Assembly: GCF_010731695.1 (NCBI RefSeq)
Contig: NZ_AP022586.1
Span: 1,240,001 to 1,304,000, forward strand
Origin: Mycolicibacterium litorale
GTDB lineage: Bacteria > Actinomycetota > Actinomycetes > Mycobacteriales > Mycobacteriaceae
Reading direction: 5' to 3'
Length of the DNA: 64,000 bases
Shown: positions 57,880 through 63,078 of the stretch, piece after piece
Numbering within the stretch: position 1 is the stretch's first letter
Layout: each line of letters opens with the position of its first letter
Notes under the pieces: generated by a model
The model's input: only the letters and a program-made list of their open reading frames with translations
What the model was told of the DNA's origin: nothing
Databases searched by the model: none
Made by a program: the position numbers and the translations under genes

Positions 57880-58664
57880 GTCGGTTGGGTGGCTTGTTCG
57901 ACGCTTGCCGCGCCGAGCAGCGTGCGGCGCTGATCGGATACCTGCCGACCGGGTTCCCCGACGTGCCGGAGTCGATCTCGGCGATGACGGCGCTGGTCGA
58001 ATCCGGTTGCGACGTCATCGAAGTGGGCATCCCGTATTCCGACCCGGGGATGGACGGCCCAGTCATCGCCGCGGCCGCGGACGCCGCGCTGCAGGGCGGC
58101 GTCCGGGTGCGCGACACATTGGCCGCGGTCGAGGCGATCAGCAACGCCGGCGGCCGCGCCGTGGTCATGACGTACTGGAATCCGGTGCTGCGGTGGGGGA
58201 TCGACGCATTCGCGCGGGACCTCGCGGCCGCCGGTGGGTTGGGCTTGATCACGCCCGATCTGATCCCCGAAGAGGCCGACGAGTGGATGGCCGCCTCGGA
58301 GGCCCATGATCTCGACCGCATCTTCCTGGTGGCACCGGCGTCCACGCCCGAGCGGCTGGCCAAGACCGTCGAGGCGACCCGCGGCTTCGTGTACGCCGCG
58401 TCGACGATGGGTGTCACCGGCGCGCGTGACGCCGTGTCGAGCGCGGCACCCGAACTGGTCGCGCGAGTGAAAGAGGTGTCGGACATCCCGGTCGGCGTCG
58501 GCCTCGGGGTGCGGTCCCGCGAGCAGGCCGCCGAGATCGGCGCGTACGCCGACGGCGTGATCGTCGGGTCGGCGCTGGTGTCGGCGCTCAAGGAGGGGCT
58601 GCCTGCCGTGCGGGCGCTGACCGAGGAACTAGCTGAGGGAGTGCGCCAGAGGGTGACGGCGTGA
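57876..58664 (+). CDS. trpA: Tryptophan synthase alpha chain
   Basis: 262-residue barrel that cleaves indole glycerol phosphate to indole for TrpB. Catalytic glutamate and aspartate are in [18 protein letters not shown] near 46-63; [13 protein letters not shown] opens the first loop and [14 protein letters not shown] near 209 is the phosphate site. GTGA overlap runs into lgt, so lgt is cotranslated with the trp genes. Confidence 0.96.
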
Positions 58665-60457
58665 CGTCCACGCTGGCGTACCTCCCCAGTCCGTCGCAGG
58701 GCGTCTGGCAGCTGGGCCCGTTCCCGTTGCGGGCGTACGCGCTGTGCATCATCGCCGGCATCATCGTGGCGCTGGTGCTCGGTGACCGGCGCTGGGAAGC
58801 GCGCGGCGGTGAGCGCGGGGTCATCTACGACATCGCCCTGTGGGCAGTGCCCTTCGGCCTGATCGGCGGTCGGCTCTATCACGTCTTGACCGACTGGCGG
58901 ACGTACTTCGGACCCGACGGTGCGGGGCTGATCGCCGCCTTCCGAATCTGGGAGGGCGGCCTCGGTATCTGGGGGGCGGTGGCGCTCGGCGGTGTGGGGG
59001 CGTGGATCGCGTGCCGGCGCCGGAACATCCCGCTACCCGCGTTCGGCGACGCGATCGCGCCGGGCATCATCCTGGCGCAGGCGATCGGGCGTCTCGGCAA
59101 CTACTTCAACCAGGAGCTCTACGGCGGACCGACGACGCTGCCGTGGGGGCTGGAGATCTACGAACGCCTCGATGCCAACGGCCAGCGAAACGATCTGATC
59201 GGGGTGTCGACGGGCCGGGTGCTGGAGGTCGTGCACCCCACCTTCCTGTACGAACTGCTGTGGAATCTGCTGGTGTTCGCGGTGCTCATCTGGGCGGACC
59301 GGCGATTCAAACTGGGGCACGGCAGGCTGTTCGCGCTCTACGTCGCGGGGTACTGCCTCGGCCGGTTCTGGATCGAGCTGCTGCGGACCGACATGGCCAC
59401 GCATCTGGCGGGCATCCGGATCAACTCGTTCACGTCGATGTTCGTGTTCATCGGCGCGGTCGTCTATCTGATGGCGGCGCCGCGGGGCCGGGAGGATCCG
59501 GCGACGCTGCGGGAGGCGCCTGAGGAGGACGCCGAGGCCGAGGGTCTCGAAGCCCGAGGCTATGAGCACGGGGGCCGGGAGGACGCCCGGACCGAGGAGT
59601 TCCTCAAGGAGCTTGCGACCGGTGTCGCGGTGACGACGGGTGTCGGGGTGGCGGCGAAGGTCGCGGGAGACGAAGACCCTGACGACGACCCTGATGATGA
59701 GGCCGACGGCAATGCTGAGGATGCCGTCGCCGCAGAGGATCTTGACGCCGTTGCGGACGAGGTGACCGCGGACGACAAAGCGGAGCCGGTGGCTGAGGCT
59801 GAGGCGTTGGCTGAGGATGTGGAGTCGGCGCCGTCGGAGGACATTGCGGAGGCGGTGGCGTTCGCGGAGGCCGGTGAGGCCGCTGATCGTGAGCCGTTGA
59901 CGACGGCGGGTGCGGTTGAGGGCGAGGACGCGGTCGCCGTTGAGGAGGCTGCCGAAGCGGCGCATGAGGCGGCGGTTGAGCGGGCGGAGGAAGCCGAGAC
60001 CGTTGCGGATGACGTGGCCGCGGACGACAAGGCGGCGCCGGTGGCTGAGGCTGAGGCGTTGGCTGAGGACGTGGAGTCGGCGCCGTCGGAGGACATCGCG
60101 GAGGCGGTGGCGTTCGCGGAGGCCGGTGAGGCCGCTGATCGTGAGCCGTTGACGACGGCGGGTGCGGTTGAGGGCGAGGACGCGGTCGCCGTTGAGGAGG
60201 CTGCCGAAGAGGCGCATGAGGCGGCGGTTGAGCGGGCGGAGGAAGCCGAGGCCGTCGCGGACGAGGTGACCGCGGACGACGGGGCTGCTGATCGTGAGCC
60301 GTTGACGACGGCGGGTGCGGTTGAGGGCGAGGACGCCGTCGCCGCTGAGGAGGCTGCCGAAGAGGCGCATGAGGCGGCGGTTGAGCGGGCGGAGGAAGCC
60401 GAGGCCGTTGCGGACGAGGTGACCGCGGACGACGGGCTGCTGATCGTGAGCCGTTGA
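58661..60457 (+). CDS. lgt: Prolipoprotein diacylglyceryl transferase with long Ala/Glu-rich extension (frame broken)
   Basis: Moves diacylglycerol to the cysteine of prolipoproteins, the step before LspA. Core residues 1-275 have seven helices and the Lgt signature GRLGNYFNQELYGG near 144-157, plus VVHPTFLYELLWN near 193 and HGRLFALYVAGYCLGRFWIE near 226. After residue 285 comes an acidic Ala/Glu-rich tail with repeats. As read the protein stops at 60457 (598 residues) with an odd ending LLIVSR. One base is missing at 60434-60436 compared with the sister copy at 60281-60284 (GGG against GGGG). Restoring it would join the next frame to 61587, about 975 residues. The catalytic core is intact either way. 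Confidence 0.9.
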   Translation: MTSTLAYLPSPSQGVWQLGPFPLRAYALCIIAGIIVALVLGDRRWEARGGERGVIYDIALWAVPFGLIGGRLYHVLTDWRTYFGPDGAGLIAAFRIWEGGLGIWGAVALGGVGAWIACRRRNIPLPAFGDAIAPGIILAQAIGRLGNYFNQELYGGPTTLPWGLEIYERLDANGQRNDLIGVSTGRVLEVVHPTFLYELLWNLLVFAVLIWADRRFKLGHGRLFALYVAGYCLGRFWIELLRTDMATHLAGIRINSFTSMFVFIGAVVYLMAAPRGREDPATLREAPEEDAEAEGLEARGYEHGGREDARTEEFLKELATGVAVTTGVGVAAKVAGDEDPDDDPDDEADGNAEDAVAAEDLDAVADEVTADDKAEPVAEAEALAEDVESAPSEDIAEAVAFAEAGEAADREPLTTAGAVEGEDAVAVEEAAEAAHEAAVERAEEAETVADDVAADDKAAPVAEAEALAEDVESAPSEDIAEAVAFAEAGEAADREPLTTAGAVEGEDAVAVEEAAEEAHEAAVERAEEAEAVADEVTADDGAADREPLTTAGAVEGEDAVAAEEAAEEAHEAAVERAEEAEAVADEVTADDGLLIVSR

Positions 60458-61095
60458 CGACGGCAGGTGCGGTTGAGGGCGAGGACGCCGTCGCCGCTGA
60501 GGAGGCTGCCGAAGAGGCGCATGAGGCGGCGGTTGAGCGGGCGGAGGAAGCCGAGGCCGTTGCGGATGAGGTGGCCGCGGACGACAAGGCGGAGCCGGTG
60601 GCTGAGGCTGAGGCGTTGGCTGAGGATGTGGAGTCGGCGCCGTCGGAGGACATTGCGGAGGCGGTGGCGTTCGCGGAGGCCGGTGAGGCTGCTGATCGTG
60701 AGCCGTTGACGACGGCGGGTGCGGTTGAGGGCGAGGAAGCGGTCGCCGTTGAGGAGGCTGCCGAAGCGGCGCATGAGGCGGCGGTTGAGCGGGCGGAGGA
60801 AGCCGAGGCCGTTGCGGACGAGGTGACCGCGGACGAAGGGGCCGCTGATCGTGAGCCGTTGACGACGGCGGGTGCGGTTGAGGGCGAGGAGGCGGTCGCC
60901 GCTGAAGAGGCTGCCGAAGAGGCGCATGAGGCGGCGGTTGAGCGTGCGGAGGAAGCCGAGGCCGTTGCGGACGAGGTGACCGCGGAGGCCGGTGAGGCTG
61001 CTGATCGTGAGCCGTTGACGACGGCGGGTGCGGTTGAGGGCGAGGACGCGGTCGCCGTTGAGGAGGCTGCCGAAGCGGCGCATGAGGCGGCGGTC
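59752..61095 (+). repeat. Coding repeat array in the lgt 3' extension
   Basis: A block encoding ADREPLTTAGAVEGE recurs seven times; its GCTGATCG starts are at 59882, 60134, 60287, 60439, 60691, 60844 and 61000. Spacings are 252, 153, 152, 252, 153 and 156 bases: long and short units of 84 and 51-52 codons, in an order suggesting duplication of a larger block. Only the 152 step breaks the reading frame. Confidence 0.9.
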
Positions 61096-61587
61096 GAGGC
61101 ACACGAGGAGGCCGTCGAGCTCGCGGAGGAAGCCGACGAGGAAGCCGACGAGGATGCCGACGCAGTAGCGGAGGACGACCAGCCGCAGGGCGAGGACCTC
61201 GAAGCGGCCGCGGAAAGGGCCGATGAGGCGGAGGCCGTGGCCGAGGACATCGCCCTCGCTGACGCCGAAGGCCACTTCGCCGACGAGGAGCCCGTCGACG
61301 ACGGGCCCGTGAATGCCGACTCGGACGTCATAGCCGGCGAGGTCGGCGCAGCCGAGGCCGACGCGCTCGAGGATCCGGACACCCAGCGACAGGCTGAGTC
61401 CGACGACGCCGCCGAACCGATCGTCGCGGACGACGAGTTGGCCGCAAGCGTTCAGGACGCAACCGGCACCGACGTCGTAACACCCGATCAGACGCCTGCA
61501 GCCACATCACCCCCAGCGACACCGTTCGCCGCACCGAAGCGCGCCACCCGCGCGCTCCGCGAGATGTTGCGGCGCCGCCGGAAGTAG
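60434..61587 (+). pseudogene. lgt: Frameshifted continuation of the lgt C-terminal extension
   Basis: From 60434 the repeat protein carries on in the +1-shifted frame to the stop at 61587, about 380 codons, with the same codon bias and repeats as the first part. After the last repeat come a unique acidic region (EEADEEADEDADAVAEDDQP) and a strongly basic end, KRATRALREMLRRRRK. No convincing start codon or ribosome site opens this frame, so it is a separated tail of lgt rather than a gene of its own. It may reflect a true mutation, slippage, or an assembly error in repeats. Confidence 0.85.
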
Positions 61588-61622
61588 CGATCCCGACACC
61601 GCGATGTGTCAGACCCCGGCTC

Positions 61623-61628
61623 TACAAT
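61623..61628 (+). promoter_or_regulatory. -10 box of the DUF222/HNH gene, leaderless
   Basis: TACAAT ends 7 bases before ATG 61636. The spacer CGAAAGC differs at one base from that of the nrtR promoter (CGAAAAC). Confidence 0.55.
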
Positions 61629-61635
61629 CGAAAGC

Positions 61636-63078
61636 ATGTTCGAAGAGTCGCAGACGGCAGCACGGTCGCTGGTCGACCGCATCGCCGGGTCAGCCAAGGC
61701 GGCCAACCAGGCGACCGCCCGCATGCTGGTTGCCATCGGCGATCTGTATCGGCTGCGGCTGCGAGAGGTCGGCGATGCCGCCTACGCCGCCTGCGACACC
61801 GTGGACGCGGTCGCCGCCGAAGTAGCTGCCGCGCTGACCATCAGCGCAGACCTGGCCGGCAGCCACCTGCGGCACGCCGTGGCGATGCACGACCGGCTGC
61901 CGCAGGTCGGTTCGGTGTTCGTCGCCGGCGACATCGACTACTTCATGTTCCAGACCATCGTCACCCGCACCAACCTCGTCGTCGATCCCGACGCGCTGGC
62001 CGCAGTCGACGGTCAGATCGCAGCCGCAGCGTCGCGCTGGACCGCCCTGAGCAAAGGCCAGCTCTCCGCGCGCGTGGATCGGATCGTCGCTCGGGTGGAT
62101 CCGGACGCCGTGCGCCGCCGGAAAGAAGCCGCCGAGCGGCGTGAGATCTGGGTCGCTGACCGCCTCGACGGCTTGTCGGACATCGGCGGGACGCTGTTCA
62201 CCACCGCGGCCCACGCCCTCGACCAGCGGCTCAATGCCTTGGCGGCCACCGTCTGCGAGCACGATCCCCGCAATCGAGACCAGCGCCGCGCGGACGCGGT
62301 GGAAGCCATGGTGGCCGGCGCCGACCGGATGGCATGCCGCTGCGACAACCCGGATTGCGCCGCCGGCGGGTTGACCGCGGGTCCGGTCGTCATCCACGTC
62401 ATCGCCGACCAGCCGACCGTCGAGGGGACCAGTGACAACGAGGGGTCGCTGATCGGTGCCGACGGGCTACTGCCTCCGGAAGTCATCGCCGAGCAAGCCC
62501 GGTCTTCCACGCTGCACCCGCTCACCCTGCCCGCCGACGCGCCACCGGAACCGCGGTACGCCCCGTCCCGGGCACTGGCCGAGTACGTCCGTTGCCGCGA
62601 CCTGACGTGCCGATTCCCCGGCTGCGAGCGGCCCGCCGCGCGCACCGACCTCGACCACACGATTCCCCGCGGCTCCGGCGGGCCCACCCAGGCGGCGAAC
62701 CTCAAGTGCCTGTGCCGGATGCACCACATGATCAAGACCTTCGGCGGCTGGAAGGATCAGCAGTTGCCCGACGGCACCGTCATCTGGGTGAGCCCCTCCG
62801 GGCACACGTACGTCACCACCCCGGGCAGCGCCCTGCTGTTCCCCGGCTTGTGCGCACCCACCGCGCCGGTCGCGGGCAAGAAGTTCGACACCGTCGCCGG
62901 TGACCGTAAGGCCAGAATGCCCCAGCGTCGCCGCACCCGGGCGCAGAACCGCGCCGCGGTTGTGGCGAAGGAGCGCGCTCACAACCGGGCGATGCGCCAG
63001 AAGAAGCGCCGGGAGACGCACGCATATCTGTCCGGCAACTCCACACCAGATCCCGGCGACGAGCCTCCGCCGTTCTGA
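61636..63078 (+). CDS. DUF222 / HNH endonuclease-domain protein (13E12 repeat family)
   Basis: 480 residues. The helical DUF222 region fills about 10-300, with the HNH module near 328-372: CRFPGCERP, then DLDHTIPRGSGGPT and CLCRMHHMIKT, which gives the zinc cysteines and the HNH histidines. The C-terminus is very basic (RKARMPQRRRTRAQNRAAV). Such genes are multicopy in mycobacteria, sometimes linked to 13E12 elements; no flanking inverted repeats or transposase are visible here. DNA cleavage is expected from the fold but targets are unknown. ATG 61636 follows a TACAAT -10 box. Confidence 0.88.
   Translation: MFEESQTAARSLVDRIAGSAKAANQATARMLVAIGDLYRLRLREVGDAAYAACDTVDAVAAEVAAALTISADLAGSHLRHAVAMHDRLPQVGSVFVAGDIDYFMFQTIVTRTNLVVDPDALAAVDGQIAAAASRWTALSKGQLSARVDRIVARVDPDAVRRRKEAAERREIWVADRLDGLSDIGGTLFTTAAHALDQRLNALAATVCEHDPRNRDQRRADAVEAMVAGADRMACRCDNPDCAAGGLTAGPVVIHVIADQPTVEGTSDNEGSLIGADGLLPPEVIAEQARSSTLHPLTLPADAPPEPRYAPSRALAEYVRCRDLTCRFPGCERPAARTDLDHTIPRGSGGPTQAANLKCLCRMHHMIKTFGGWKDQQLPDGTVIWVSPSGHTYVTTPGSALLFPGLCAPTAPVAGKKFDTVAGDRKARMPQRRRTRAQNRAAVVAKERAHNRAMRQKKRRETHAYLSGNSTPDPGDEPPPF

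What the first reader, a model, noticed from the sequence alone, without database searches (positions are those of the whole stretch)
60281..60457. Single-base deletion breaks the lgt repeat extension
Seven coding repeats are spaced 252, 153, 152, 252, 153, 156 bases. The only spacing not divisible by three is where GGGG (60281-60284) has become GGG (60434-60436). After it, the same repeats and codon bias carry on in the shifted frame for some 380 codons to 61587. The read gives a 598-residue Lgt ending LLIVSR instead of about 975 residues. A G run inside long direct repeats is a place where slippage or recombination could switch the tail on and off, but it is also where assemblies fail.
Basis: seen in the sequence. 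Interest (0 to 1): 0.75.

Follow-up and report, generated by a model that had tools for sequence, protein, structure and literature searches.

The report
Broken reading frame in Lgt tail
A housekeeping lipoprotein-making enzyme of a mycobacterium appears cut short because its repeat-filled tail loses the reading frame; this is most likely a sequencing slip or an isolated mutation, not a genetic switch.

Summary
The lgt gene (58661-60457) carries an acidic, repetitive C-terminal extension, and the repeat spacings are 252, 153, 152, 252, 153 and 156. The 152 step moves the reading frame; the extension then continues, open and with the same codon bias, to 61587. Its end aligns with the Lgt tail of one sister genome.

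The catalytic core lies far upstream and is intact. Among 187 relatives whose tail ends on the contig, a loose test flagged one other frame break, and that tail contains a run of N. The break sits in a G run of three to four bases; longer G runs in the same gene are in frame. Contigs end inside this tail about four times more often than expected. A protein of what looks like the same species stops inside the repeats and cannot decide the matter. About 400 kb of this genome shows no other convincing frame break, so the assembly seems generally good.

Best reading: an isolated indel, somewhat more likely a consensus error in the repeat array than a real recent mutation. If real, it would probably be tolerated, because tails of 106 relatives vary from 61 to 755 residues. 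Phase switching is unsupported.

The parts
58661..60457 (+). lgt ORF as it stands, 598 residues, ending LLIVSR
   Evidence: Pfam LGT PF01790 at residues 15-271, E 5.4e-66
58661..59488 (+). Lgt core (residues 1-276), intact
   Evidence: similar to E. coli Lgt 5azb over residues 2-248
59489..60454 (+). acidic repeat extension, part read in the lgt frame
60385..60454 (+). stretch in which both the lgt frame and the downstream frame are open
   Evidence: stop positions
60434..60436 (+). G run at which the frame of the repeats changes
60454..61587 (+). rest of the Lgt extension in the shifted frame, 377 residues from a TTG that overlaps the lgt TGA
   Evidence: last 130 residues align to the tail of sister genome G153
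59885..61025 (+). seven anchors (GATCGTGAGCCGTTGACGACGGC) of the repeat array
61549..61584 (+). basic C-terminal end (RALREMLRRRRK) like that of many relatives, out of frame with the Lgt core here
   Evidence: at least 4 R/K in the last 15 residues in 78 of 106 relatives

Best explanation
This is the ordinary mycobacterial Lgt gene with its long, acidic, low-complexity C-terminal extension. Its reading frame is broken once by an isolated single-base length difference in a short G run inside near-identical repeats. The most likely cause is a consensus error in the repeat array rather than a feature of the living cell, in which the extension would then be read as one piece. Shown: the frame break, the coding character of both sides, the intact core, the absence of clean breaks in the relatives examined, and the excess of contig ends in this tail. 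Inferred: that an error is the cause.
For: The break stands alone. Under the strict test 0 of 106 relatives have an acidic frame continuing after the Lgt stop. Under the loose test 1 of 187 does, and that tail holds a run of N. No decay is visible after the break: the distal frame has no stop for 400 codons, and the broken copy differs from its neighbour by two synonymous changes over the 131 bases after the run. dN/dS of the last part against sister G153 is 0.35 over 120 codons, one pair only, and it covers the whole time since that split. The tail is a hard place to assemble: contigs end in it in 14 of 120 genomes against 3.34 expected. P0006, a protein with 405 residues identical to this Lgt from another contig of 318,638 bases, stops inside the repeats, presumably at a contig end. 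Within 80 bases of the run only two bases tell the copy from its neighbour. Deletion errors in one long-read assembly peaked after runs of four to five (PMC12007338, passages only).
Against: The assembly looks clean elsewhere. In about 400 kb compared with G153, 195 genes had an orthologous hit, 177 of them at least 90 percent in one frame; of four split candidates none looked like a real break, three of the four judged from sequence. The other 14 partial matches were not examined, and that detector did not flag the lgt break itself. None of 41 relatives with at most 6 contigs was cut off or broken, so such errors are not common in complete genomes. K-mers of 30 to 100 bases over the run are unique in the window, so good short reads could have corrected it. 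In PMC12007338 errors at G/C runs were about half as many as at A/T runs. How this genome was sequenced is unknown.
Confidence: 0.55

Rival explanations
1. A real, recent and tolerated mutation of this strain. Lgt is made with a shorter acidic tail and without the usual basic end; the catalytic core works as before.
For: The core is complete. Tail length in relatives runs from 61 to 755 residues with 42 of 106 shorter than the 322 residues left here, so a short tail is viable in the genus. The compared 400 kb of the assembly look clean. A second, tail-less Lgt-family gene exists at G000:C1:31071-31775. In M. tuberculosis, indels correlate with low-complexity sequence (PMC8339072, passages).
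Against: No clean tail break in the other 186 loci with a complete tail, so such mutations are rarely seen. 78 of 106 relatives have a basic end, which this one would lose.
Confidence: 0.38
2. A phase-variable tail: slippage in the G run, or recombination between repeats, switches the distal extension on and off.
For: The break lies in a G run inside near-identical direct repeats, and tail length differs widely between species. Phase variation by homopolymers is known in M. tuberculosis (PMC11898584, passages).
Against: The run is three to four bases; runs of six and five G in the same gene are in frame. The other repeat spacings are multiples of three, so gain or loss of whole units keeps the frame. 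No relative shows a clean second state.
Confidence: 0.04
3. The two ORFs are both translated: the ribosome stops at the lgt TGA and restarts at the overlapping TTG, or slips frame, so the distal tail is made as a second chain or as a minor fusion.
For: TTGA overlap at 60454-60457; the same four bases occur in all seven anchors.
Against: No slippery heptamer in the overlap, no unusual RNA structure (z 0.48), no obvious ribosome-binding site directly before the TTG (by eye). The overlap follows from the repeat sequence and needs no selection.
Confidence: 0.03

Closest known systems
Mycobacterial Lgt (prolipoprotein diacylglyceryl transferase) with C-terminal extension
   Same: Core family match and a long acidic Ala/Glu-rich extension with a basic end as in many relatives. 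The extension of M. tuberculosis Lgt is described as large and without homology to known proteins (PMC13251419, passages).
   Different: The reading frame of the extension is broken once in this assembly.
Gene-fragmenting indel errors in long-read assemblies (Kastor paper, PMC12007338)
   Same: Single-base deletion next to a short homopolymer that splits a conserved gene (passages).
   Different: Sequencing method of this genome unknown; no general excess of broken genes seen in about 400 kb.
Homopolymer phase variants of M. tuberculosis (glpK, ESX-1 associated)
   Same: Frame change at a run of one base (PMC11898584, PMC12817950, passages).
   Different: Short run here (the length of those tracts is recalled, not read) and no second state seen in relatives.
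lgt of M. ulcerans (MUL_1594), called a conserved pseudogene
   Same: A mycobacterial lgt annotated as broken (PMC3434033, passages).
   Different: Where the lesion lies in that gene was not seen; here only the tail is affected.

Membership tests
Lgt (PF01790 / TIGR00544) | Family profile over its curated cut-off | tested here: met
   PF01790 222.8 bits against 24.9; TIGR00544 143.4 against 118.9
Lgt (PF01790 / TIGR00544) | Core residues of the enzyme in place | tested here: inconclusive
   Aligned to 5azb over residues 2-248 with conserved blocks; the E. coli H103 position is W, as reported for Actinobacteria; the other residues were not checked one by one
NCBIfam NF009611 (PRK13108, Lgt with extension) | Score over the equivalog cut-off of 636 | tested here: not met
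   554.7 bits. All five full-length relatives given (P0002, P0003, P0012, P0101, P0116) also miss it, with 571.6 to 616.7, as does the cut-off P0006 with 554.9, so the miss cannot be put down to the break
Homopolymer phase-variable locus | Long single-base tract (about seven or more, recalled) | tested here: not met
   Run of three here, four in two sister copies; longer runs in the gene are in frame
Homopolymer phase-variable locus | Both frame states seen among strains or relatives | tested here: not met
   1 of 187 relatives flagged, with a run of N in the tail; strains of the same species were not available
Programmed -1 frameshift | Slippery heptamer in the overlap followed by stable structure | tested here: not met
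   none in 60385-60457; fold of 60380-60520 z 0.48
Stop-start translational coupling | Overlapping stop and start codon | tested here: met
   TTGA at 60454-60457, but a by-product of the repeat unit
Assembly error | Reads disagree with the consensus | not testable with these tools
   no reads held

The most novel reading that the evidence does not exclude
Each of the seven repeat anchors carries a TTGA, so a one-base loss upstream of it would stop translation there and could restart it in the original frame. This strain would then make the acidic Lgt tail as a separate cytoplasmic polypeptide next to a short-tailed Lgt.
Probability: 0.03. Interest if true: 0.5.

Novelty: not a real feature. 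Interest (0 to 1): 0.15.

Why it matters
It shows how a repetitive tail can make an intact housekeeping gene look broken. That matters for gene catalogues of mycobacteria, in which lgt has been listed as a pseudogene in at least one species (PMC3434033, passages; the place of that lesion was not seen). The more interesting object is the tail itself: a fast-changing acidic repeat that often ends in a basic, Arg-rich and sometimes Trp-containing end and has no assigned function that I found.

Tried and rejected
Phase variation and programmed frameshifting were tested and set aside. Promoter and terminator scans of 60000-61700 found none. A search for residues encoded by 61099-61584 in 61 genomes hit only this genome (G153 was not among the 61), so conservation of the end rests on one direct alignment, in which G153 was the only relative whose tail carried the motif used to anchor it.

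The first frameshift survey picked ORFs by length and gave 10 split candidates of 115 and 3 of 113, many of them low-identity pairs that look like ORFs in wrong frames. It was replaced by codon-scored gene calls (3 of 122 and 2 of 118; 4 of 195 and 3 of 207). Of the four G000 candidates, q6, q247 and q202 were looked at in sequence: an upstream extension before an ATG, two normal overlapping genes, and a piece that looks like a wrong frame. q0 and the three in G153 were judged from coordinates and identity only. Of the 195, 177 were at least 90 percent in one frame; 14 further partial matches were not examined. The detector does not flag the lgt break itself, so it is blind in repeats.

The strict tail test missed L151; the looser one found it, and one search showed a run of N (scaffold gap or masked stretch) in its tail. 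Literature: five searches. The last, for Lgt with frameshift and acidic in mycobacteria, returned none, but its whole-word setting with a word stem made it uninformative, so I make no claim that this is absent from print. Structure prediction was not used: the core is a known fold and the tail is low complexity.

Full report
What was checked. The window lies in a one-contig genome of 5,579,510 bases. Its nearest named relatives by Lgt sequence are Mycolicibacterium and Mycobacterium; the species itself is not named. The gene order is trpB, trpA, lgt, then a DUF222 gene (the trp names and the link of the DUF222 gene to the 13E12 family are recalled, and the trpA ORF was not tested). The lgt ORF runs 58661-60457 and gives 598 residues; a second ORF runs 60454-61587 and gives 377 residues.

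Seven copies of a 23-bp anchor are spaced 252, 153, 152, 252, 153, 156 (one search finds an eighth, more diverged copy 252 bases upstream). The 152 step moves a 19-bp anchor from position class 0 to class 2 modulo 3. The lgt frame is open from 58661 to its stop at 60455, and the other frame is open from 60385 to 61584 with 37 stops before that. Codon-position G+C shifts with the frame.

What the second frame is. It is the continuation of the Lgt extension. It contains the same peptide repeats (DREPLTTAGAVEGE...). Its last 130 residues align with the end of the Lgt of G153, a sister genome with 93 percent identity in the core, with dN/dS 0.35 over 120 codons. G153 was the only relative whose tail carried the motif used to anchor that comparison, and a search of 61 other genomes found no match to this end. 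The figure covers the whole time since the split from G153, so it shows that the frame was selected, not when it broke. The tail ends in a basic stretch, as many relatives do: 78 of 106 have at least four R/K in the last 15 residues.

What the enzyme keeps. The Lgt domain spans residues 15-271 and matches E. coli Lgt, 5azb, so the break lies more than 300 residues beyond the core. Tail length after residue 276 is 61 to 755 in 106 relatives, median 423; 42 of 106 are shorter than the 322 residues left here. A second Lgt-family gene is present elsewhere in the genome. Loss of function is therefore not expected if the break is real. This is inference.

How often tails break. Lgt was found in 197 of 198 genomes of the genus. 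Stretches from 120 of these were fetched first, and in 106 the tail ends on the contig. None of the 106 has an acidic frame of at least 40 codons after the Lgt stop under the strict criteria. With a looser test, 29 more genomes and the 80 loci (22 duplicates dropped), 187 of 207 distinct loci had the stop on the contig; in 20 the contig ended first. One of the 187 was flagged, L151, whose tail holds a run of N. The one search set includes actinobacteria outside the genus; within the genus sample the figure is 1 of 132. No relative examined shows a clean second state. The remaining 48 genomes with Lgt were not fetched.

Is it an error? Contigs end inside the tail in 14 of 120 genomes against 3.34 expected from rounded contig counts and the median tail length. 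Among drafts with 7 to 300 contigs it is 9 of 67 against 1.66. P0006, identical to this Lgt over its 405 residues and from a contig of 318,638 bases, breaks off inside the repeats, presumably at a contig end. No full-length protein of that kind was listed among the best 120 of 7926 hits. The broken copy and its neighbour differ at only two bases within 80 bases on either side of the run. Against an error, about 400 kb of this genome compared with G153 showed no other convincing frame break: 195 genes of G153 had an orthologous hit, 177 of them at least 90 percent in one frame, and the four split candidates did not hold up, one of them judged without its sequence; 14 partial matches were not examined. 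None of 41 relatives with at most six contigs was cut off or broken, and k-mers of 30 to 100 bases over the run are unique in the window. The sequencing method is unknown. I put error at 0.55 and real mutation at 0.38.

Why not a switch. The run is three to four bases. Runs of six and five G in the same gene are in frame. The other repeat spacings are multiples of three, so unit gain or loss keeps the frame. There is no slippery heptamer in the overlap, no notable RNA fold and no clean second state in relatives. The TTGA overlap looks like stop-start coupling, but it is present in all seven anchors because of the sequence REPLTT, so it needs no special explanation.

Literature seen. PMC13251419 (passages) notes the large C-terminal extension of M. 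tuberculosis Lgt without homology to known proteins. PMC3434033 (passages) lists lgt as a conserved pseudogene of M. ulcerans; the place of the lesion was not seen. PMC12007338 (passages) reports that deletion errors in a long-read assembly peak after runs of four to five, with G/C runs about half as often hit as A/T runs. PMC8339072 (passages) reports that indels of M. tuberculosis correlate with low-complexity sequence, and also that such places are prone to assembly and alignment errors. PMC11898584 and PMC12817950 (passages) describe homopolymer and repeat variation in M. tuberculosis. A term search found no mention of lgt in these last three papers.

Noticed in passing
58661-61587 and loci L114-L233: Mycobacterial Lgt tails are acidic, repeat-rich and vary from 61 to 755 residues in 106 relatives, yet 78 of 106 have at least four R/K in the last 15 residues, often as an end such as RRRWWRRR. 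This looks like a kept basic end on a fast-changing spacer; function unknown.
   Followed up: partly
lgt tails of draft genomes, loci L114-L233: Contig ends fall inside the lgt tail about four times more often than expected (14 of 120 against 3.34), so gene catalogues of drafts will hold cut-off Lgt proteins.
   Followed up: yes
L253 (G000:C1:31071-31775, minus strand): A second Lgt-family gene in an open frame of 268 codons, without the acidic tail.
   Followed up: no
L151: Lgt tail with a run of N; after it the acidic sequence continues in another frame to a basic end.
   Followed up: yes
59033-61382, minus strand: Three ORFs of 571 to 689 codons lie antisense to lgt and its repeat array; they look like by-products of the repeats and high G+C.
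   Followed up: no
61606-63078: DUF222 gene (13E12/HNH type, recalled) directly after lgt.
   Followed up: no
G153 around 1759627-1761633: Two neighbouring genes that overlap at ATGA in G000 (1524208-1526207) read as one 668-codon ORF in G153, perhaps a frame change there.
   Followed up: partly
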